Made by a program: the position numbers and the translations under genes | NCBI RefSeq assembly: GCF_011927825.1 | Contig: NZ_JAATJI010000001.1 | Location: 2,710,001 to 2,774,000, forward strand | Source: Polymorphobacter fuscus | GTDB lineage: Bacteria; Pseudomonadota; Alphaproteobacteria; Sphingomonadales; Sphingomonadaceae | DNA: 64,000 bases | Direction of reading: 5' to 3' | Shown here: positions 3,471 through 40,392 of the stretch, one piece after another | Position numbering within the stretch: position 1 is the stretch's first letter | Layout: the number at the start of each line of letters is the position of its first letter | Notes under the pieces: generated by a model | What the model saw: the letters and a program-made list of their open reading frames with translations, nothing else | What the model was told of the DNA's origin: nothing | Databases searched by the model: none

Positions 3471-4148
3471 ATGAAAATCCTCGTCGTACTGACCTCGCAC
3501 GCCGATCTTGGCGACACCGGCAAGAAGACCGGCTTCTGGCTCGAGGAACTCGCCGCGCCCTATTATGTCTTCAAGGACGCGGGCGCCGAAATGGTCCTGG
3601 CGTCGCCGCAGGGCGGCCAGCCGCCGCTCGACCCGACCAGCGCCGCACCCGATGCGCAGACCGACAGCACGCGGCGCTTCGATGCCGATGCCGAAGCCGG
3701 GGCCGCGCTTGCCGACACCCGGCGCCTCGATACGGTCGACATCGCCGATTTCGACGCAGTCTTCTATCCCGGCGGCCATGGTCCGTTGTGGGACCTTGCC
3801 AATGACGCCGCCTCGGTCGCGCTGATCGAAGCCGCGATCGCCGCCGGCAAGCCGGTCGCCGCCGTCTGCCATGCCCCCGGCGTGCTGCGCGACGTCAAGG
3901 GCACCGATGGTGCGCCGCTGGTCCGCGGCAAGCGCGTCACCGGCTTTGCCAACAGCGAGGAAGCGGCGGTCGGGTTGACCGATGTCGTGCCCTTCCTGGT
4001 CGAAGACATGCTCAAGGAACAGGGCGGCGACTATTCGAAGACCGCTGATTGGGACGTCCATGTCGTCGAAGACGGGCTGCTGATCACCGGGCAGAATCCG
4101 GCGTCCTCGGCAAAGGCGGCAGAGGCACTGCTCGGCAAGCTGGGCTGA
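3471..4148 (+). CDS. DJ-1/PfpI superfamily protein (type 1 glutamine amidotransferase-like)
   Basis: A 225-residue single-domain DJ-1/PfpI protein. The nucleophile elbow AVCHAPGVL carries the conserved Cys near residue 131, with YPGGHGPLWDL just before it and a conserved Glu in the N-terminal part. The arrangement resembles Hsp31/YhbO-like glyoxalase III or deglycase proteins that handle reactive aldehydes. The start ATG has a GGAGA site 7 bases upstream. It stands alone, 56 bp after the dipeptidase gene. The exact activity (glyoxalase, deglycase, chaperone) cannot be assigned from sequence. Confidence 0.9.
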   Translation: MKILVVLTSHADLGDTGKKTGFWLEELAAPYYVFKDAGAEMVLASPQGGQPPLDPTSAAPDAQTDSTRRFDADAEAGAALADTRRLDTVDIADFDAVFYPGGHGPLWDLANDAASVALIEAAIAAGKPVAAVCHAPGVLRDVKGTDGAPLVRGKRVTGFANSEEAAVGLTDVVPFLVEDMLKEQGGDYSKTADWDVHVVEDGLLITGQNPASSAKAAEALLGKLG

Positions 4149-4154
4149 CCCGGA

Positions 4155-4190
4155 CAACAAAATGGCGGCCGGTGTCGCCACCGGCCGCCA
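4155..4190 (-). terminator. Intrinsic terminator, minus strand
   Basis: A perfect 12-bp stem (TGGCGGCCGGTG at 4163-4174 paired with CACCGGCCGCCA at 4179-4190) with a 4-base loop. Read on the minus strand the stem is followed by TTTTGTTGT (4154-4162), a U-rich tail. On the plus strand no U-tract follows. It is therefore oriented to end a minus-strand transcript entering from above 4190; it may also slow plus-strand transcription leaving the PfpI gene. Confidence 0.85.
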
Positions 4191-4545
4191 CTGTGTCGTG
4201 CCTGCTTGGCGGGGCACACCGGCGCGGCCTTTCAGCTTTCGCTGCCTGGCCTCTGCCTTCGGCCTCGCGGCCCGTTCGCCTGTCGGCGACGTGTCCCGAC
4301 TTGGTGCCACGGCACTTCGCAGGTCGGTCCGCCCGGTCGGGCCTTCCTTGCTGCCGGACCGGCCGCTTCCCCGTCGCTGCGCCCTCCATTTGCATGGCCG
4401 CGCTTGCGGGCTGGTTCCCCGGCCGTCCCTTGCCTTCGACCGGCGTTGCAATTCCTGCCCTGCGGCTCGAACTGGCGCTGTCTCCGGCTGTAAACCGTTC
4501 ATTTCCTTCGGCGTTTCCGCCGCCGTCAATTCCCGGCTACAAGGC
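4155..4545 (-). ncRNA. Candidate structured non-coding RNA, about 390 nt
   Basis: This gap between the PfpI and DUF3072 genes has no credible coding frame on either strand, yet the minus strand is dense with hairpins: three short stems closed by GNRA tetraloops, at 4386-4397 (loop GCAA), 4261-4272 (GCGA) and 4233-4244 (GAAA). Further stems include a CGGTCCG/CGGACCG pair, GTGCC/GGCAC and GGCG/CGCC. Loops are purine-rich on the minus strand, and the series ends at the U-tailed terminator 4155-4190. A weak -35-like TTGACG (4569-4574 on the complement) suggests a start near 4540. The conserved RNase P RNA, tmRNA tag and SRP core sequences were looked for and not seen. Identity is unknown; the boundaries are estimates. 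Confidence 0.6.
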
Positions 4546-4597
4546 AAGTGTCTCACCCGGCCGCGAGTCGTCAAAGCGAAATAATTGCCGGCCGGCC

Positions 4598-4606
4598 TGT
4601 GGATAA
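4598..4606 (-). promoter_or_regulatory. dnaA box: Perfect DnaA box (TTATCCACA)
   Basis: TGTGGATAA on the plus strand is the consensus DnaA 9-mer on the minus strand. It is followed by CGGGGATATCGGGGATAAGT. Nearly the same block, TGTGGATAACGGGGATAAGT, lies in front of nrdA. Here the box sits about 55 bp upstream of the presumed start of the candidate RNA and just after the DUF3072 gene. Confidence 0.65.
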
Positions 4607-4640
4607 CGGGGATATCGGGGATAAGTCGCCGCCAAAGCCT

Positions 4641-4856
4641 TTAATGGTCGACCCCGCGGCCTGTCTTCGCCTGCAGTTCCTCGATGCGCAGGCTGGCCTC
4701 GGCCTTGGTCAGCGTTTCGTCGAAATCTTCGCCGGCTTCGTGCGCAAGCGTCTTGAGATAGCTCGCCTGCGGGCCGGTCATCGCCTCGTCGCCGGTGGTC
4801 CAGTCGGCCGGGTCCTTTTCGGCGCCGGCGGGCAGGTCGCGGTTGGTGTCGGACAT
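4641..4856 (-). CDS. DUF3072 family small protein
   Basis: A 71-residue protein matching the DUF3072 pattern: PADWTTGDEAMTGPQASYLK followed by TLAHEAGEDFDETLTKAEAS and an IEELQ end. The ATG at 4856 has a strong AAAGGAGA site 8 bases upstream, so an upstream extension of the frame is rejected. The family has no known function; similar segments occur fused to DNA ligase or BRCT-like proteins in some bacteria, which is recollection, not shown here. No membrane segment. It is a solo gene. Confidence 0.8.
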   Translation of the reverse strand: MSDTNRDLPAGAEKDPADWTTGDEAMTGPQASYLKTLAHEAGEDFDETLTKAEASLRIEELQAKTGRGVDH

Positions 4857-4934
4857 CGGTTGTCTCCTTTTGTTCCTATGTCTGAACGCGGCGTTCCGGC
4901 CGGCGTTCCCCGGCGACATGGCCGCAGCCTGTCG

Positions 4935-33443: not shown

Positions 33444-33802
33444 GATCTGGGTCTTCCGGGGGTGCGGCAACTGCGCGTCGCATAGCCCGCGGCGCCGTTG
33501 CGGTCCACCGCCGAATCATTTGGCCCGGCAAGCCCTTGGGCGTGTTTGCCGCGGCGCGAAAGGCCCGGAAAAAGATAAATTGGGCTTGTGTTTCAAAGCG
33601 GATCAGGCACAATCTGTAGCTCGGGGACAGGCGCCGTCACACAAGCTGTGGTGGCACAGGTCGAAGGAGGGCAGACCATCGGCACAACGCCGGGCCACAA
33701 CGCCGGTTGTGGATAACGGGGATAAGTGCACGCGCACGGATTGGCGCGTGACCCCGGTTTGTTCTCATTCTACCATCCCCCGGCAGGATCGATTCGGGAG
33801 TG
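33444..33802 (+). promoter_or_regulatory. nrdA control region with paired NrdR boxes
   Basis: A 359-bp gap between the divergent fumarase and nrdA genes. Two palindromic NrdR-like boxes, GGCACAATCTGTAG (33606-33619) and CACACAAGCTGTGGTG (33638-33653), are 32 bp apart by alignment of their CACAA cores, the three-turn spacing NrdR requires. They lie about 150-200 bp before the coding start. The DnaA box at 33708 follows. NrdR represses class I RNR genes in most bacteria, so repression here is an inference from the family. Confidence 0.75.
33708..33716 (-). promoter_or_regulatory. dnaA box: Perfect DnaA box in the nrdA leader
   Basis: TGTGGATAA, the complement of TTATCCACA, inside TGTGGATAACGGGGATAAGT. 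DnaA control of nrd genes is known from E. coli. The same 17-bp core occurs at 4598. Confidence 0.7.
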
Positions 33803-35725
33803 ATGCGGGTGAGCGAATTTCAGACCATGGCCGATCGTGACGGCCACAGCGAGGACGTGCTGACCCGCGATCCGGCGCCTGCCGCGGCGGCGCCCGCGCC
33901 CGCGGCGCGTCGCGCCTCCAACGAGGTCATGCCGTGGAAATTCCCGATCACCGTCGATCGCAGCCGCGACGCGCTGCTGACCGACTTCGGCCGCGAAACC
34001 CTCGACGACCGCTATCTGCTCCCCGGCGAATCCTACCAGGACCTGTTCGCCCGCGTCGCTGCCGCCTATGCCGACAACGCCGCCCACGCCCAGCGGCTCT
34101 ACGATCACATGTCGCAGCTGTGGTTCATGCCCTCGACGCCGGTGCTGTCGAACGGCGGCACCGGGCGCGGCCTGCCGATCTCCTGCTATCTCAACTCGGT
34201 CGGTGACAGCCTCGATGCCATCGTCAACACCTGGAACGAAAATGTCTGGCTGGCGTCGCGCGGCGGCGGCATCGGCACCTATTGGGGCAATGTCCGCGGT
34301 ATCGGCGAACCCGTCGGCCTCAACGGCAAGACCAGCGGCATTATCCCCTTCGTCCGCGTCATGGACAGCCTCACCCTCGCCATCAGCCAGGGGTCGCTGC
34401 GCCGCGGTTCGGCCGCCGTCTATCTCGACGTCTCCCACCCCGAAATCGAGGAATTCCTCGAAATCCGCAAGCCGTCGGGGGACTTCAACCGCAAGGCGCT
34501 CAACCTCCACCACGGCGTCCTCATCACCGATGCCTTCATGGCGGCGGTCCGCGACGGCACCGATTTCGACCTCATCAGCCCCAAGACCGGCGAAAAGCGC
34601 GGGCGGGTCGATGCCCGCAGCCTGTTCACCAAGCTCGTCGAAACCCGGCTGGCGACCGGCGAGCCGTACATCATCTTCGTCGATGAAGTGAACCGCACCA
34701 TGCCTAAGCACCAGCGCGACCTGGGGCTGAAGGTCAGCACGTCGAACCTTTGCTCCGAAATCACCCTGCCGACCGGGCCGGACCATCTCGGCAACGACCG
34801 CACCGCCGTCTGCTGCCTGTCGTCGCTCAACCTCGAAACCTGGGACCAGTGGCACGGCGACCCGCAGTTCATTGAAGACTGCATGCGCTTCCTCGACAAT
34901 GTCCTGCAGGATTACATCGACCGCGCCGAACCCGAAATGGCGCGCGCCCGCTATGCGGCGGAACGCGAACGCTCGGTCGGCCTCGGCGTCATGGGGCTGC
35001 ACAGCTTCTACCAGGCGCGCGGCATCGCCTTCGAAGGCGCCATGGCGAAATCGTGGAACCTGAAGATGTTCCGCCACATCCGCGCCCAGGTCGACCAGGC
35101 GTCGATGGCGCTCGCTGCCGAACGCGGCCCGTGCCCCGATGCCGCCGACATGGGCGTCATGGAACGCTTTTCCTGCAAGATGGCGATCGCGCCGACCGCG
35201 AGCATCTCCATCATCGCCGGCGGCACCAGCGCCTGTGTCGAACCCATCCCCGCCAATATCTACACCCACAAGACGCTGTCGGGCAGCTTTTCCATCCGCA
35301 ACCCGTTCCTCGAAAAGCTGCTGATTTCCAAATCGAAGAACAGCGACGCGGTGTGGAACTCCATCCTCGAACAGGGCGGCTCGGTCGGCCATCTCGACTT
35401 CCTGACGGCGGACGAAAAGGCGGTGTTCCGCACCGCCTTCGAAATCGACCAGCGCTGGCTGCTCGAACTCGCCGGCGACCGCACGCCCTATATCGACCAG
35501 GCGCAGTCGCTCAACCTGTTCATCCCGGCGGACGTGGAAAAATGGGACCTGCTCATGCTCCACTATCGCGCCTGGGAGCTCGGCATCAAATCGCTCTATT
35601 ATCTCCGCTCGATGAGCATCCAGCGCGCCGGGTTCGCCGGCGGCGTGGAGGCGGACAACACGCCAGCCGCGCCCATCATGAAGATGGAGATGAAGGATTA
35701 CGACGAATGTCTGGCGTGCCAATAG
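33803..35725 (+). CDS. nrdA: Ribonucleoside-diphosphate reductase class I, alpha subunit
   Basis: Large catalytic subunit that reduces ribonucleotides for DNA synthesis, about 640 residues. Active-site set: PISCYLNSVGDS near residue 126 and the AVCCLSSLNLE pair near 334, NLCSEITLP near 314 for the thiyl Cys and Glu, and the C-terminal redox pair in YDECLACQ. The N-terminus is an Ala/Pro-rich linker of about 40 residues followed directly by the catalytic domain; the usual ATP-cone of E. coli NrdA is absent, explaining the 120-residue shorter chain. A GGGAG site fits best with GTG 33809; ATG 33803 is the conventional choice. Confidence 0.96.
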   Translation: MRVSEFQTMADRDGHSEDVLTRDPAPAAAAPAPAARRASNEVMPWKFPITVDRSRDALLTDFGRETLDDRYLLPGESYQDLFARVAAAYADNAAHAQRLYDHMSQLWFMPSTPVLSNGGTGRGLPISCYLNSVGDSLDAIVNTWNENVWLASRGGGIGTYWGNVRGIGEPVGLNGKTSGIIPFVRVMDSLTLAISQGSLRRGSAAVYLDVSHPEIEEFLEIRKPSGDFNRKALNLHHGVLITDAFMAAVRDGTDFDLISPKTGEKRGRVDARSLFTKLVETRLATGEPYIIFVDEVNRTMPKHQRDLGLKVSTSNLCSEITLPTGPDHLGNDRTAVCCLSSLNLETWDQWHGDPQFIEDCMRFLDNVLQDYIDRAEPEMARARYAAERERSVGLGVMGLHSFYQARGIAFEGAMAKSWNLKMFRHIRAQVDQASMALAAERGPCPDAADMGVMERFSCKMAIAPTASISIIAGGTSACVEPIPANIYTHKTLSGSFSIRNPFLEKLLISKSKNSDAVWNSILEQGGSVGHLDFLTADEKAVFRTAFEIDQRWLLELAGDRTPYIDQAQSLNLFIPADVEKWDLLMLHYRAWELGIKSLYYLRSMSIQRAGFAGGVEADNTPAAPIMKMEMKDYDECLACQ

Positions 35726-35982: not shown

Positions 35983-37038
35983 ATGTCGCTCCTCAAGGCC
36001 TCCAAATCCTACAAGCCCTTCGAATATCCCTGGGCCTATGACTTCTGGAAACGCCAGCAGCAGATCCACTGGATGCCGGAGGAAGTGCCGCTGGGGGAGG
36101 ATTGCCGCGACTGGGCGCAGAAGCTCACCGAGCATGAGCGCAATCTGCTCACCCAGATCTTCCGCTTCTTCACCCAGGCGGATGTGGAGGTGCAGGACTG
36201 TTATCACGAAAAATACGGCCGGGTGTTCAAGCCGACCGAGATCAAGATGATGCTGGCGGCGTTCAGCAACATGGAAACGGTGCACATCGCCGCCTACAGC
36301 CATCTGCTCGATACGATCGGCATGCCCGAAAGCGAATACAGCGCCTTCCTCAACTACAAGGAAATGCGCGACAAGCACGAATATCTGGCCAATTTCAACG
36401 TGGAGACCGACACCGATATCGCCCGCACGCTGGCGATGTTCGGCGGCTTCACCGAAGGGCTGCAGCTGTTCGCCAGCTTTGCCATGCTGATGAACTTCCC
36501 GCGCTTCAACAAGATGAAGGGCATGGGCCAGATCGTCACCTGGTCGGTCCGCGACGAAAGCCTCCACTGCGAAGGCATCATCAAGCTGTTCCACGCCTTC
36601 TGCGCCGAAACCGGCGTGCTGACGCACAAGCTGCGCGACGAAATCGCCGACATCTGCCAGCGCACCGTCCGGCTGGAAGACAATTTCGTCGACCTGGCCT
36701 TCGAAATGGGCCCGGTCCCCGGCATGACCGCGTCGGACATCAAGCGCTACGTCCGCTTCACCGCCGACTGGCGGATGAAGCAGCTCGGCATGAAGCCGAT
36801 CTACATGATCGAGGAACACCCGCTCCCCTGGCTGACGCCGCTGCTCAACGGTGTGGAGCATGCCAATTTCTTCGAAGCCCGCGCGACGGAATATTCCAAG
36901 GCGGCGACCAAGGGCAATTGGAACGAGGTCTGGGACGCGTTCGACAGCCGCAAGGGTGCCAAGGCGCTGAGCGAAGGCGGGGCGGCGAATGGGGTTGATG
37001 ACCGGCAGGGTGGGTTGTTGGGGGTGGCTGCGGAGTAA
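35983..37038 (+). CDS. nrdB: Ribonucleoside-diphosphate reductase class I, beta subunit
   Basis: Small subunit carrying the di-iron centre and Tyr radical for NrdA, 351 residues. The radical Tyr is at about residue 105 in HIAAYSHLLDT, aligned with E. coli Y122. Iron ligands appear in ADVEVQDCYH, NMETVHIAAYSH, and VRDESLHCEGIIKLFH (Glu and His). The C-terminal tail, where NrdA binding is expected, is unusually Gly-rich: KALSEGGAANGVDDRQGGLL. The frame is open upstream but the start is ATG 35983. It is the last gene before the AT-rich cassette. Confidence 0.96.
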   Translation: MSLLKASKSYKPFEYPWAYDFWKRQQQIHWMPEEVPLGEDCRDWAQKLTEHERNLLTQIFRFFTQADVEVQDCYHEKYGRVFKPTEIKMMLAAFSNMETVHIAAYSHLLDTIGMPESEYSAFLNYKEMRDKHEYLANFNVETDTDIARTLAMFGGFTEGLQLFASFAMLMNFPRFNKMKGMGQIVTWSVRDESLHCEGIIKLFHAFCAETGVLTHKLRDEIADICQRTVRLEDNFVDLAFEMGPVPGMTASDIKRYVRFTADWRMKQLGMKPIYMIEEHPLPWLTPLLNGVEHANFFEARATEYSKAATKGNWNEVWDAFDSRKGAKALSEGGAANGVDDRQGGLLGVAAE

Positions 37039-37075
37039 TTAAATAGTTAACCCCAACTATAAGGCTTAAAAAAAC

Positions 37076-37894
37076 GTGAACTCAAACCAACGGCGGATAT
37101 TCGACAGCGTCGTATCAGTAGACGCGTGGCACACGTCATTTGACAATGCCAGTCAAGTCGCTGCTGTTCATGTTGACGTATCGTTCCTGAGAGGGAAGCT
37201 TGGGGATGAGCCAGAAAGCCCAGTTCGTTTTGAGGTTTCCTTGAGCAAGGCGGAGGTTGTATTTATAATACCGGCAGGCGAACCTTTGTCTGTCATACAG
37301 ACATCTGTTCGTAGAGAGCAGCCTCTGACAGTTCAAAAAACATTGATCACATCAAAAGACAGATCAATGATGGTGAAAGGAAATGCAGGTCTGAATATTG
37401 ATGCAGCAAATACCAATATAGAGCTGTCTTCATCGGGAGGGTACTCAAACGCAACAAATTCGCAGGAGCAAACGCAGGTTACCCAAAATACGGGCGGTAT
37501 AGCTTGGGCGCAATCTAAACTGCCGACCGGTGAGTACGTTTGGCAACTAGCTCCAGCCAATTCAAAAGCGCTGCTCGGTAAAGCATGGGATTCGGTTCTA
37601 GAGCCGCTACTTAAAATAAAGAATATGAGCAAGGTAGAGAATGTAATTGAGTCTGTCGCCAGAATTGAGGTCCGTTGCAGACGCGAAGATTTAGTTATAT
37701 CCAATTTTGTTATTAAAGATCAAGGCGTTGTACAAAACATTAAAAACAAGATGCTTAACAACAAGATTGCAGCGGCGGAGGCATACATAAGGAATTCCCT
37801 ATCTGACAGGAATCTTGATGTAAGAAATTTTTCGGATCCGTATGGATCTATTACACTCGCAGATTTGTTTATTGAAAAGCAAATAGAAGAATGA
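37076..37894 (+). CDS. Hypothetical protein of AT-rich cassette, gene 1
   Basis: Unknown 272-residue protein, GTG start, no signal peptide or membrane helix. Base composition is much more AT-rich than any neighbour (about 43% GC by eye against roughly 67%). The first half is beta-strand-like (SQVAAVHVDVSFLRGKLG, VRFEVSLSKAEVVFIIPAG). A Ser/Asn/Gln-rich segment, ELSSSGGYSNATNSQEQTQV near residue 122, leads into WAQSKLPTGEYVWQLAP. The last third looks helical and charged. The stop overlaps the next ATG (ATGA). I recognise no family. Foreign base use and coupling suggest transfer as a pair. Confidence 0.75.
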   Translation: MNSNQRRIFDSVVSVDAWHTSFDNASQVAAVHVDVSFLRGKLGDEPESPVRFEVSLSKAEVVFIIPAGEPLSVIQTSVRREQPLTVQKTLITSKDRSMMVKGNAGLNIDAANTNIELSSSGGYSNATNSQEQTQVTQNTGGIAWAQSKLPTGEYVWQLAPANSKALLGKAWDSVLEPLLKIKNMSKVENVIESVARIEVRCRREDLVISNFVIKDQGVVQNIKNKMLNNKIAAAEAYIRNSLSDRNLDVRNFSDPYGSITLADLFIEKQIEE

Positions 37895-38565
37895 CTAGCT
37901 GGCTAGCTGGAATAAATAAAATACTGTCTGCAAATACCGCAGACTTGAAAGAACTTGCCAGAACAGTCGGAGCCGAGCCAGAGATATTCTATGTCGGACA
38001 AGACCTGTCCGCATGTGATCTAAAAGACCAAGACTTGCGCGGAATGAACCTTACAGGTACCAATCTGACTTGGTCGAACCTAAACGAAAATACAAAAATT
38101 GATCCCCAGTTTGATCCCAGGTTTGTTTTTATTGAAGAATATGTAAATTTCAAAATTACATTAAAGATGGCTGCTCTCTTGCAGTCTTATTGTAATAATC
38201 GACACTACACCTATAAAGCATGGGCCGTTAAGAATCTGGTTGATGTCGCCGTTCGTGCTGATCATAGATTTAGTGGAAACTATGGACTATTTGTCGAAAC
38301 AAACAGCCTATATGAGGAGATCCTCAGGGAGAAACGTAAGACAACTAGTATGCGGGTTTTGATATTCCTTAACATCCAACGCAAAGTATTTGAGCTTTCA
38401 ATCTCTCGATATGGGCATTTTGATTCGGACATTTATGCGCGACTAATTCTGGAAGGAATTGTGCGAGATCGTCTGCCGAAGTTGAATTTCGACTCGTATG
38501 GTAATATTGATCCTTTCCAATTGTACCCTGACGTTTATGAAAACTATCAGCTATTATTGGCGTGA
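37891..38565 (+). CDS. Pentapeptide-like protein of AT-rich cassette, gene 2
   Basis: Unknown 224-residue protein. Residues 37-68 have a pentapeptide-repeat-like run (LSACDLKDQDLRGMNLTGTN, then LTWSNLNENTKID), a fold that often mimics nucleic acid or mediates contacts. The remaining 150 residues are mixed: CNNRHYTYKAWAVKNLVDVA and RRYGLF-like helices, ending YPDVYENYQLLLA. The start overlaps the upstream stop by 4 bases, so the pair is co-translated. Base composition is AT-rich like gene 1. Two-gene cassettes of this kind are common in defence islands, but no known defence domain is visible. Confidence 0.75.
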   Translation: MTSWLAGINKILSANTADLKELARTVGAEPEIFYVGQDLSACDLKDQDLRGMNLTGTNLTWSNLNENTKIDPQFDPRFVFIEEYVNFKITLKMAALLQSYCNNRHYTYKAWAVKNLVDVAVRADHRFSGNYGLFVETNSLYEEILREKRKTTSMRVLIFLNIQRKVFELSISRYGHFDSDIYARLILEGIVRDRLPKLNFDSYGNIDPFQLYPDVYENYQLLLA

Positions 38566-38606
38566 CGCTTGAATAAGTGTTTGACAGAGATTGCAGTAGT
38601 GCGGCC

Positions 38607-38840
38607 TTAAAATCGCTCGAAAGGGGTTGGGGGCCAGCGCCCTAGCCGCAGGAGGCAGGCAGAAAGAGCGTTGTGCCAAGGCCTCGCCGTAGAAAAGATT
38701 CGACGGGGGAAGGCCAGTGTTGTCATCGTCAGCCTCGTGGCATAGCGGTAGGCGGCGTCCTGACCGAGGGGCGCCACGCCATAGTCGTAGATCGCGTCAA
38801 GGTCGCCTCGCGCCGCAGCGCTGAACCTAAGCCTTGGCAA
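38607..38840 (-). pseudogene. Degraded ParE/RelE-family toxin
   Basis: The first 37 residues match a ParE toxin start (RLRFSAAARGDLDAIYDYGV then AYRYATRL), but from about residue 38 the frame is unrelated (TMTTLAFPRRIFSTARPW) and runs into the repeat at 38621-38656. Intact ParE toxins have about 95 residues with a conserved C-terminal basic strand, which is missing. The start TTG at 38840 overlaps the antitoxin stop, as in parDE operons. The toxin is therefore probably dead. Confidence 0.7.
38621..38656. repeat. Extra copy of the nrdA-nrdB arm repeat
   Basis: AGGGGTTGGGGGCCAGCGCC then CTAGCCGCAGGAGGC aligns with the right arm 35921-35958 (ACGGGGTCTGGGGCCC... GCCGCCGGAGGC), somewhat shorter and diverged. 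It lies where the AT-rich cassette meets the broken toxin gene. Confidence 0.65.
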
Positions 38841-39075
38841 GCAGGTTGCGAGCGCGGGCGTCGGCGAATATCTCCTCGATAGTCAGGTCGCAGACCTCGC
38901 TGGTGTCCCCTTCATCGAGTGCCGCATAGAGCGCCGCCTGCCGTGCGGCATCGTCGCGATCACGCACGACCAGATCGCTGAGATAGGCGTCGGCGTCGGG
39001 CCCGGCGCAGGTGGCGACCTGCCGGGCGATCCCTTCGCGGGCCGGTTCGGCATGGCGGGAGGGCGCATCGGACAT
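38827..39075 (-). CDS. ParD-family antitoxin
   Basis: An 82-residue protein like the ParD/CopG antitoxins: N-terminal variable region, then AYLSDLVVRDRDDAARQAAL forming the ribbon-helix-helix-linked helix, and a C-terminal toxin-neutralising tail DLTIEEIFADARARNLLAKA. The start at 39075 gives the usual length; the open extension to 39171 is ignored. Its stop overlaps the degraded ParE start, the standard antitoxin-toxin order. With the toxin broken, this is an orphan antitoxin. Confidence 0.8.
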   Translation of the reverse strand: MSDAPSRHAEPAREGIARQVATCAGPDADAYLSDLVVRDRDDAARQAALYAALDEGDTSEVCDLTIEEIFADARARNLLAKA

Positions 39076-39162
39076 GCCCGCAAATCTGCCCCCGATGGTC
39101 GCGCCCGTCAAAAAAAGGGGTCCGGGCAGCGCGGCTGGTGTGCGAGGTTTCCCAGGACGCGA

Positions 39163-39222
39163 CACCCTCACCCGTGGCCGCGCTGCGCGCGTCTCTCGAC
39201 CTCTCCCGCAGGCGGGAGAGGG
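39163..39222. repeat. Intergenic GC-rich palindromic repeat, copy 2
   Basis: Contains CACCCGTGGCCGCGCTGC, the core GCGCGTCTCTCGACCTC, and a CTCTCCCGCAGGCGGGAGAG hairpin. Core and layout resemble 826-889. Confidence 0.45.
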
Positions 39223-39257
39223 GTTGCTGTGGCCGGCGCCGTCGATAATCTGCTCCC

Positions 39258-39631
39258 ATGTCGCGCGTCACTCGGATCGTCAGCCCGCATGCGGCGCCGC
39301 TGCGGCAGAGCATGCCCGACGCCGAAGCCCGGCTGTGGCGGGAGCTTCGCGATCGCCGCCTGCTCGGGCACAAGTTTCGCCGGCAGCACAGCATCGGGCC
39401 GTTCATCGCCGATTTGCCTGTGTCGCGGCGCGGCTGGTGATCGAACTCGACGGTTCGCAGCATGCGCACGCCGGGGCCGCCGACGCGCGCCGCACCGCCT
39501 TGCTGGCGGCCGAGGGCTGGACGGTCATCCGCTTCTGGAACGCGCGGGTGCTGGCCGACATGGACAATGTGCTGCGCGAGATCATCGCCCATCTGCGGTC
39601 GCCGCGCAGCGGAAATTGCAAGCAGTCCTGA
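39258..39631 (+). pseudogene. DUF559 endonuclease-like protein, frameshifted
   Basis: Two frames together make one DUF559 protein of about 120 residues, a Vsr/restriction-endonuclease-like fold: MPDAEARLWRELRDRRLLGH then KFRRQHSIGPFIAD in the first frame, and FACVAARLVIELDGSQHAHA then WTVIRFWNARVLADMDNVL in the second. The break is at about 39411, where GATTTGCC lacks one T (GATTTTGCC would restore GPFIADFACVAARLV). Either a real single-base loss or a homopolymer base-call error. Function of the family is unknown; members often sit in mobile contexts. Confidence 0.82.
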
Positions 39632-39912
39632 CAGCGCCGCCCGACTCGACCCTCCCGTTACCCCCGTTGCACCCCGTCACCACCCCGCGAACGCCCTGCC
39701 GCCGCCCCGGAAACGCCCCCAGGATGCCCCGCGGCGACCCCGTCGCGCCCCGGCGACGCCCGGTTTTCATCCCGAAAGACCAGGACAATCACCACGCCGC
39801 GAACAGCAAGCCCACACAAAATATCGTTCCAGACCAACTGTTTGCTGGTGCCACGCGCCACATCATAACCCGAAATCTTGACAAAACAAGCCATATAGGT
39901 TAGTGGTGAACC
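39632..39912 (+). other. Intergenic gap, C-rich then AT-richer, with a promoter-like end
   Basis: The first 140 bp is C-rich on the plus strand (CCCGTTACCCCCGTTGCACC style) with no credible gene. The last 100 bp has lower GC and a perfect -35 hexamer TTGACA at 39878-39883, followed by CATATAGG and TAGTGG near -10, upstream of the HTH gene at 39913. The -10 is poor. Confidence 0.4.
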
Positions 39913-40392
39913 ATGAAAATGCCCCGCACCACCCGCCGTATCCGCTCCGATGGCTGGACGCTGCCGCGCCAGCGGATGTTCATCAAGACGCTGGCGATGA
40001 CCGGGTCGGTCAAGCAGGCGGCGGCGCGGGCGGAGATGTCCGAATCCTCCGCCTATCGGCTGCGGCTGCACCCCGGCGCCGAGGCGTTCCGCAGCGCCTG
40101 GGAGACGGCGCTCGGCGCCTGTCCGACAACGCTGCGGCAGGTGGCGTTCGATCGCGCCATCAACGGCGTGCTGGAGGATGTCTATTGCAACGGCGTCGCC
40201 GTCGGCCGCCGCGTCGTGCTCAACGACCGGCTGCTGATGTTCCTGCTGCGCCACTATGACACCGGCGCGGCCTTTACCCCGCAGCACAAGATGCTCGAGG
40301 CGCTGGAACGGCTGGTCGAGGCCGACGACCCTGCGCCGGAGATCGTCGCGGCGGCGGACGCGCAAGGTCAGCCGGCGGTGGACGTAATCTGA
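39913..40392 (+). CDS. Small helix-turn-helix protein
   Basis: A 159-residue protein with one apparent N-terminal HTH: WTLPRQRMFIKTLAMTGSVK then QAAARAEMSESSAYRLRLHP (residues 15-54), a style shared by phage terminase small subunits and many sphingomonad orphan proteins. The rest is helical (FRSAWETALGACPTTLRQVA) with no other domain. It is probably DNA binding. No phage genes lie nearby, so a terminase role is doubtful; its own promoter-like element precedes it. Confidence 0.75.
   Translation: MKMPRTTRRIRSDGWTLPRQRMFIKTLAMTGSVKQAAARAEMSESSAYRLRLHPGAEAFRSAWETALGACPTTLRQVAFDRAINGVLEDVYCNGVAVGRRVVLNDRLLMFLLRHYDTGAAFTPQHKMLEALERLVEADDPAPEIVAAADAQGQPAVDVI

What the first reader, a model, noticed from the sequence alone, without database searches (positions are those of the whole stretch)
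4155..4545. Structured minus-strand RNA of about 390 nt, no recognised family
No coding frame is credible, but the minus strand has three short stems with GNRA tetraloops (GCAA, GCGA, GAAA), several more perfect hairpins and a perfect 12-bp stem followed by TTTTGTT. The GNRA loops and the U-tail agree on one strand, which is hard to get by chance. RNase P, tmRNA and SRP signature sequences were not found.
Basis: partly seen in the sequence, partly recalled or inferred. Interest (0 to 1): 0.78.

Follow-up and report, generated by a model that had tools for sequence, protein, structure and literature searches.

The report
Structured RNA with DnaA-box promoter
The gap holds a gene for a large, strongly folded RNA that makes no protein, is found in many related bacteria, matches no known RNA family, and has a promoter built like the sites where the DNA-replication starter protein binds, so it is probably tied to the cell cycle.

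Summary
Window 4155-4545 (minus strand) carries five GNRA-capped hairpins with stems of at least 4 bp (0.12 expected; none on the other strand); the last is a 14-bp terminator. Rfam has no match there; RNase P and tmRNA genes lie elsewhere. Homologues occur in 20 of 23 other genomes of the genus (Sandarakinorhabdus/Polymorphobacter). The body does not evolve like coding sequence, and hairpins covary. The same gene architecture reaches other genera of the family with mostly unrelated bodies but the same two ends. Upstream lie three abutting DnaA-box-like 9-mers ending in TTATCCACA, then, usually 26-28 or 16-17 nt on (one helical turn apart), a GANTC (CcrM-type) site beside the -35 element. Of 30 array loci fetched from the family, 21 are this RNA, 5 the replication origin (hemE/Kinase-PPPase gap) and 4 the ribonucleotide reductase promoter; the own genome shows the same three places. 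Best reading: a new family of large structured RNAs transcribed under DnaA (and probably GcrA/CcrM) control and acting in trans as folded RNA. RNA gene: near-certain. DnaA control: likely. What the RNA does: unknown. No transcription data were available.

The parts
4596..4625 (-). Array of three abutting DnaA-box-like 9-mers (C-TTATCCCCG-ATATCCCCG-TTATCCACA-GG)
   Evidence: with up to 2 mismatches exactly one copy in 21 of 24 genus genomes, none in the other 3 and none for the reversed control
4598..4606 (-). Perfect DnaA box TTATCCACA
   Evidence: two perfect copies in the 64-kb window, the other at 33708-33716; with one mismatch allowed single boxes are at chance level (4 found, 3.1 expected), so the weight lies on the array and its company
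4565..4575 (-). -35 element TTGACG (4569-4574) overlapping a GANTC site, GACTC 4565-4569
   Evidence: GANTC 16-17 or 26-28 nt behind the array in 73 of 88 distinct array matches, N = C in 69 and A in 4 (one of the 4, L166, is not this RNA)
4546..4551 (-). Weak -10-like hexamer ACACTT, 17 nt behind TTGACG; predicted transcript start near 4540 (inferred)
   Evidence: Position; the consensus scan finds no sigma-70 promoter
4158..4540 (-). Structured noncoding RNA, about 383 nt (predicted transcript)
4490..4540 (-). 5' domain: helix P1 (4535-4540 with 4490-4495) enclosing hairpin P2 (4510-4521, GGCG-GAAA-CGCC)
   Evidence: P2 closing pair: A-U 11, G-C 5, U-A 2, C-G 1, unpaired 1 of 20; P1 pairs in 96.7% of cells but has one-sided changes only
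4453..4471 (-). Hairpin P3 on the conserved GGAATT
   Evidence: 72.5% of cells paired; 3 of 6 pairs with changes on both sides
4386..4397 (-). GCAA tetraloop hairpin
4307..4320 (-). Conserved core GCGAAGTGCCGTGG; in the long clade's consensus fold its counterpart pairs with GGCACGACAC (here 4193-4202)
4261..4272 (-). GCGA tetraloop hairpin
4233..4244 (-). GAAA tetraloop hairpin
4155..4192 (-). Intrinsic terminator: 14-bp stem, GCGA loop, T-rich tail
4641..4919 (-). DUF3072 gene between the thiolase gene and the RNA promoter (neighbour, not part); not found at the other 20 genus loci
   Evidence: Pfam PF11272
4935..6116 (-). Thiolase gene, upstream neighbour at 18 of 21 genus loci
   Evidence: not detected at L002, L006 and L017, which hold only short upstream flanks
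3471..4148 (+). DJ-1/PfpI gene, convergent, so the RNA is not its leader
33708..33725 (-). Perfect two-unit array TTATCCCCGTTATCCACA upstream of the ribonucleotide reductase gene 33800-35725 (+)

Best explanation
This is a single-copy gene for a large structured noncoding RNA, the member from this genome of an undescribed RNA family of sphingomonads. Shown by comparison: an autonomous unit made of (1) abutting DnaA-box-like sites, (2) a -35 element fused to a GANTC methylation site, (3) a GNRA-rich, non-coding, rapidly evolving body (GANTC to terminator about 320-770 nt), and (4) a strongly conserved tetraloop-capped terminator. Inferred: DnaA, bound cooperatively upstream on a fixed face of the helix, switches the promoter on when DnaA activity is high (as it may at nrd), and GcrA with the housekeeping polymerase reads the methylation state of the GANTC site, so the RNA is made in a window set by replication initiation and fork passage. 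The RNA is released by the terminator, folds into a compact GNRA-docked structure and acts in trans as folded RNA, most likely as a protein-binding scaffold or decoy in replication or growth control rather than by base pairing, because body sequence is hardly conserved between genera.
For: Homologues in 20 of 23 other genus genomes and in 0 of 36 genomes of other genera by BLAST. A structure model reaches G084 and G185 of other genera with the same array and terminator. The two-unit array pattern (up to 2 mismatches) matches 88 of 397 family genomes, 25 of 96 genera; the reversed control matches in 14. All 30 loci fetched by that call are accounted for: 21 show the RNA architecture (terminator by script in 19, by eye in L087, L105 cut by its contig end), 5 lie between hemE and Kinase-PPPase, 4 upstream of nrdA. 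Own genome: same three places. oriC at hemE in Sphingomonadaceae: PMC4741004, PMC1914354 (passages). GNRA hairpins: 153 against 7.5 expected on the RNA strand, 4 against 2.2 on the other, in 57 RNAs. Covariation. Promoter model: 124 of 397 genomes (partial matches included); 73 genomes in 18 genera match end to end (hand count; part of them supplied the model). GcrA gene present. Tandem copies share ends but not bodies.
Against: No expression data. The -10 element is poor and the generic scan finds no promoter. G006, G020 and G023 of the genus lack the RNA in these searches. DnaA binding is inferred; single DnaA boxes in the window are at chance level; L168 has the GANTC, body and terminator with no clear DnaA box in the 80 nt read. 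GANTC is lost in L076. CcrM was not searched. 5 of 57 RNAs have no GNRA hairpin by the strict rule. Two covariation measures are unremarkable: pairs changed on both sides reached by 87 of 500 shuffles and 39 of 500. Only 14 of 171 body pairs from 19 representative RNAs show any similarity, which weakens a single conserved target. No fixed distance to oriC.
Confidence: 0.68

Rival explanations
1. The locus works as DNA: a DnaA-titration or reset site (datA/DARS-like, names recalled) whose transcript is a by-product.
For: The triple array occurs once per genome in 21 of 24 genus genomes; bodies diverge almost completely between genera and between tandem copies.
Against: Strand-specific 20-fold GNRA enrichment, covarying helices, a conserved terminator, and an array at two helically related distances from a -35/GANTC core, as expected of a promoter.
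Confidence: 0.12
2. A highly transcribed RNA with mainly a local role (transcription-driven supercoiling or insulation beside neighbouring genes), structure serving only stability.
For: Fast-evolving body between conserved ends.
Against: The thiolase neighbour of the genus is found at none of the loci L075-L106 and L137-L178, and distance to oriC varies.
Confidence: 0.1
3. A base-pairing riboregulator of cell-cycle mRNAs, working like CcnA of Caulobacter.
For: Same regulatory logic; CcnA acts on ctrA and gcrA mRNAs (PMC8959179, abstract and passages).
Against: About two to four times longer, not at oriC, no shared body sequence in most pairs of genera. No target prediction was run.
Confidence: 0.15
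4. A diverged copy of a known RNA (RNase P, tmRNA, 6S, SRP), a cis-acting leader, or the mRNA of a small protein.
For: Size and GNRA richness resemble RNase P; models cover this genus unevenly (6S scores under its cut-off in 15 of the 16 matching genomes).
Against: RNase P and alpha-tmRNA lie elsewhere in the own genome; no Rfam match in the window or 20 relatives' loci; it ends in its own terminator facing a convergent gene; no conserved reading frame.
Confidence: 0.03

Closest known systems
CcnA of Caulobacter crescentus (PMC8959179; abstract and passages seen)
   Same: Alphaproteobacterial noncoding RNA tied to replication and cell-cycle regulators
   Different: CcnA is 182 nt, lies at oriC and is presumably activated by CtrA; this RNA measures about 320-770 nt from GANTC to terminator, lies away from oriC and has DnaA-type boxes plus GANTC in its promoter; no direct sequence comparison with CcnA was made
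Large structured bacterial RNAs (OLE, GOLLD, ROOL; recalled)
   Same: Long, highly structured, function not obvious from sequence
   Different: No Rfam family matched in the window or 20 relatives' loci; chromosomal gene with a replication-type promoter; the window copy has no match in the phage and plasmid collections
Cell-cycle ncRNAs of Caulobacter with predicted promoter sites (PMC5988900; abstract and one section seen)
   Same: Some have DnaA or GANTC sites upstream
   Different: There at most two DnaA sites per listed ncRNA; here an array plus GANTC recurs over many genera
DnaA-type sites at nrd and oriC
   Same: Same array, in the own genome and in relatives
   Different: They precede a protein gene or mark the origin; this one precedes a noncoding RNA

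Membership tests
RNase P RNA (RF00010) | Match to the family model at this locus | tested here: not met
   No match here; the gene is at G000:C1:284855-285261
Alphaproteobacterial tmRNA (RF01849) | Match to the model at this locus | tested here: not met
   Gene at G000:C2:64526-64877; ARAGORN finds none in the window
6S RNA (RF00013) | Match to the model at this locus | tested here: not met
   No match here; 16 of 24 genus genomes carry a 6S-like match elsewhere, the own genome none at E <= 0.001
CcnA-type RNA | Lies at oriC | tested here: not met
   hemE is about 512 kb away on the same contig
CcnA-type RNA | Base-pairs with ctrA/gcrA mRNA leaders | not tested
   No target prediction was run
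Cis-regulatory leader | Same-strand gene follows directly | tested here: not met
   Convergent DJ-1/PfpI gene behind a terminator
DnaA regulon | DnaA-box array at the promoter, shared with oriC and nrd | tested here: met
DnaA regulon | DnaA binds and changes transcription | not testable with these tools
   Needs ChIP, EMSA and reporters
GcrA/CcrM regulon | GANTC site in the promoter, GcrA gene present | tested here: met
   (GcrA E = 6.5e-44; the family control also rings in Sulfolobus, so the model is not fully specific)
GcrA/CcrM regulon | CcrM present; methylation-dependent transcription | not tested
   CcrM was not searched; methylation cannot be seen here
OLE/GOLLD/ROOL large RNAs | Match to the family model | tested here: not met
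   No match to any of the 4227 Rfam families; that these three are among them is recalled

The most novel reading that the evidence does not exclude
A family-wide, DnaA-fired and methylation-gated large RNA that reports replication initiation: its GNRA-docked fold, not its sequence, is the conserved product (a scaffold or self-assembling particle that binds a replication or growth factor), and lineages have duplicated it and swapped bodies behind the same promoter and terminator.
Probability: 0.25. Interest if true: 0.93.

Novelty: new variant of a known kind. Interest (0 to 1): 0.8.

Why it matters
A conserved noncoding RNA whose promoter carries the array found otherwise at oriC and nrd would put a large structured RNA among the direct outputs of the replication initiator. 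No title or abstract start in the ten literature listings names such an RNA (full texts were not read). It makes testable how sphingomonads couple replication to growth, offers a natural case where structure persists while sequence turns over, and gives a panel of relatives for structural work on a new large RNA.

Tried and rejected
Rfam at a loose threshold: six weak matches, E 1.1 to 7.7, judged chance. A small ORF starting in the 5' domain: the ATG is absent in several relatives (read) and indels break the frame. The 10-nt identity of GAATTGACGG with a 16S rRNA segment (recalled) was set aside because other genera lack it. This locus as oriC: rejected, hemE/Kinase-PPPase lies at 2.20 Mb. 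Origin-near position as a rule: 15 of 23 single-contig genomes have it in the origin half, range 0.06-0.87 (27 searched, 4 with several contigs left out; rounded genome sizes; positions are promoter-model hits, not all checked for a body). Mobile cargo: no plasmid or phage match, no viral-contig match of the 5' pattern. The scan of named genomes gave 19 hits: 17 have contig lengths equal to those of genus genomes; L037 and L041 were not followed up. Outside the family, G052 (L165) reads as a uvrC promoter (by eye) without a long RNA; G049 (L166) was not resolved. Weak promoter hits: L173 looks false; in g2 (L162, L163, L169, L170) no terminator was seen within the 620 nt read, so those are unproven. 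A consensus fold of the short clade was weak; the long clade gave more helices. Selection effects: A3 kept 42 terminators with a 14-bp stem and 4-nt loop out of 57, so its 100% pairing is by construction and only the two-sided changes count; A2 kept loci with a GACTC-like motif and left out L098; one search tested only distances 15-18 and 25-28; one search found a terminator in 57 of 76 promoter rows and in one tandem locus (L154) ran on into the second copy; the RNAs are related, not independent; the 73 end-to-end genomes include those that supplied the model.

Full report
What was checked. A script lists five GNRA hairpins with stems of at least 4 pairs there, the last a 14-bp terminator stem with a GCGA loop. 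Dinucleotide shuffles of the same body give 0.12 such hairpins on average and none of 100 reaches 5; the other strand has none. Folding is stronger on the minus strand (z -5.3) than on the plus strand (z -3.3). No Rfam family reaches its gathering score in the window or in 20 loci of relatives. RNase P and alpha-tmRNA are elsewhere in the same genome.

The genus. BLAST of the region against 60 genomes finds it in the own genome, in 20 of 23 others of the genus (missing: G006, G020, G023) and in none of 36 genomes of other genera. Equal contig lengths tie 17 of these genomes to records, among them Sandarakinorhabdus and Polymorphobacter (Sphingomonadales, NCBI family Sphingosinicellaceae; the search tool's family f1 is broader and unnamed). 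At 18 of 21 genus loci a thiolase gene lies upstream; the other three hold short flanks without a match; only the window has the DUF3072 gene between. Two blocks are conserved, the 5' end and the terminator; from block to block the length is 384 to 805 nt in the 18 loci measured. Open frames of 46-183 aa exist in the body but share neither frame nor place, and most indels break frame.

Structure. In 20 sequences of the 5' domain, helix P1 pairs in 96.7% of cells (one-sided changes only) and hairpin P2 in 95%; the P2 closing pair appears as A-U, G-C, U-A and C-G (19 of 20 paired). The covariation score and the cells changed on both sides exceed all 500 shuffles and the slid controls; the number of pairs changed on both sides (5) does not stand out (87 of 500 shuffles reach it). 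A helix before the GATGC(G/A)AAAGTGCC core of the long clade shows two-sided changes in 4 of 6 pairs; again the covariation score exceeds all shuffles while 39 of 500 reach the pair count (12 sequences, one poorly aligned). The terminator shows two-sided changes in 11 of 14 pairs over 42 sequences chosen for having that stem. Over 57 RNAs, GNRA hairpins number 153 against 7.5 expected on the RNA strand and 4 against 2.2 on the other; 5 of the 57 have none.

The promoter. The 21 genus loci share, with single changes in a few, TTATCCCCG-(T/A)TATCC(C/T)CG-TTATCCACA-GG: three abutting 9-mers, the last a perfect DnaA box; then usually TTGACG fused to GACTC. With up to 2 mismatches each of 21 of 24 genus genomes has exactly one copy of the triple array, and the 3 without it are those without the RNA. 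In the own genome the two-unit form with up to 3 mismatches occurs at seven places (reversed control: two); the three best are upstream of ribonucleotide reductase (0 mismatches), this RNA (1) and the gap between hemE and a Kinase-PPPase gene (2). The hemE/COG1806 gap is the replication origin of alphaproteobacteria, and sphingomonad origins lie at hemE (PMC1914354, PMC4741004; passages; that Kinase-PPPase PF03618 is COG1806/DUF299 is recalled). Single boxes in the window are at chance level, so the argument rests on the array and its company.

That company is striking. Of the 30 loci that fetched with the two-unit pattern from other genomes of the family, 21 are this RNA, 5 lie between hemE and Kinase-PPPase (L077, L078, L081, L088, L089) and 4 upstream of nrdA (L099, L101, L102, L103): 30 of 30. 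In G020, a genus member without the RNA, the array with a GACTC stands at the origin. The array is thus a DnaA-type site by company as well as by sequence; binding itself is not shown.

GANTC is the site of CcrM, and GcrA preferentially targets promoters with CcrM methylation (PMC3667746, PMC7987155; abstract passages and text passages). A GcrA gene is present; CcrM was not searched. Of 88 distinct array matches in the loci held, oriC sites included, 73 have a GANTC 16-17 or 26-28 nt behind the array; N is C in 69 and A in 4, which fits a methylation site better than a fixed word (only distances 15-18 and 25-28 were tested). Several g97 relatives have the boxes about 45 nt away (read).

The family. 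A structure model of the 5' domain reaches 12 of 397 family genomes: ten of the genus and G084 and G185 of other genera, which show the same array and terminator. The array pattern matches 88 of 397 genomes in 25 of 96 genera; the reversed control gives 14 matches. The promoter model matches 124 of 397, 40 of 96 genera, partial matches included; 73 genomes in 18 genera match end to end by hand count, some of which supplied the model, and not all were checked for a body. In the order, 66 of 326 match, all but two in the same family. Other forms escape these models: g97 and g82 with shifted or inverted boxes, and L168 (g92) with no clear box. Of 171 pairs among 19 representative bodies only 14 show any BLAST similarity at E <= 1e-3. 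In g42 two genes stand in tandem, each with array and GANTC; in L140 the two copies share only the terminator. g74 genomes carry two kinds. No locus outside the genus has the thiolase neighbour, and distance to hemE varies.

How it most likely works. Shown: gene unit, structure, spread, promoter anatomy. Inferred: DnaA activates from the upstream array; the methylation state of GANTC, read by GcrA with the housekeeping polymerase, sets timing; the RNA acts in trans through its fold. The choice of a protein-binding scaffold over base pairing rests on the lack of conserved body sequence and is the weakest step. Rivals are a DNA titration site, a local transcription effect and a CcnA-like antisense regulator.

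What is known. CcnA of Caulobacter (182 nt, at oriC, presumably CtrA-activated; PMC8959179, abstract and passages) is nearest in logic; kinship was not tested by alignment. A survey of Caulobacter ncRNA promoters lists scattered DnaA or GANTC sites (PMC5988900, abstract and section 10). Ten searches of the open-access library listed no title or abstract start that names this RNA; papers under other licences were not searched.

Noticed in passing
window 33708-33725 (-), before ORF 33800-35725 (+): Perfect TTATCCCCGTTATCCACA upstream of a ribonucleotide reductase gene; four relatives of other genera show the array before nrdA too.
   Followed up: yes
L140 (G258), L139 (G212), L154 (G295): Two RNA promoters in tandem 440-482 bp apart; in L140 the two bodies share only the terminator.
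   Followed up: partly
L151 (G230), L152 (G388) and other g74 genomes: Two RNA genes per genome with different bodies; in L151 they converge.
   Followed up: partly
L156 (G020): A genus member without the RNA carries the array plus GACTC at its replication origin beside the Kinase-PPPase gene.
   Followed up: yes
L165 (G052, another family of the order): DnaA box and GACTC upstream of what reads as uvrC, with no long RNA.
   Followed up: no
L168 (G117, genus g92): GACTC, GNRA-containing body and the typical terminator without a clear DnaA box.
   Followed up: no
window 36001-40000: Low-GC stretch (0.555 against about 0.67 around it) with ORFs 37076-37894 and 37891-38565; looks like an insertion. 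GC skew changes sign nearby.
   Followed up: no
L041 (Verrucomicrobiota MAG) and L037 (Onthenecus MAG): Hits of the 5' pattern outside the genus; chance or misbinned contigs.
   Followed up: no
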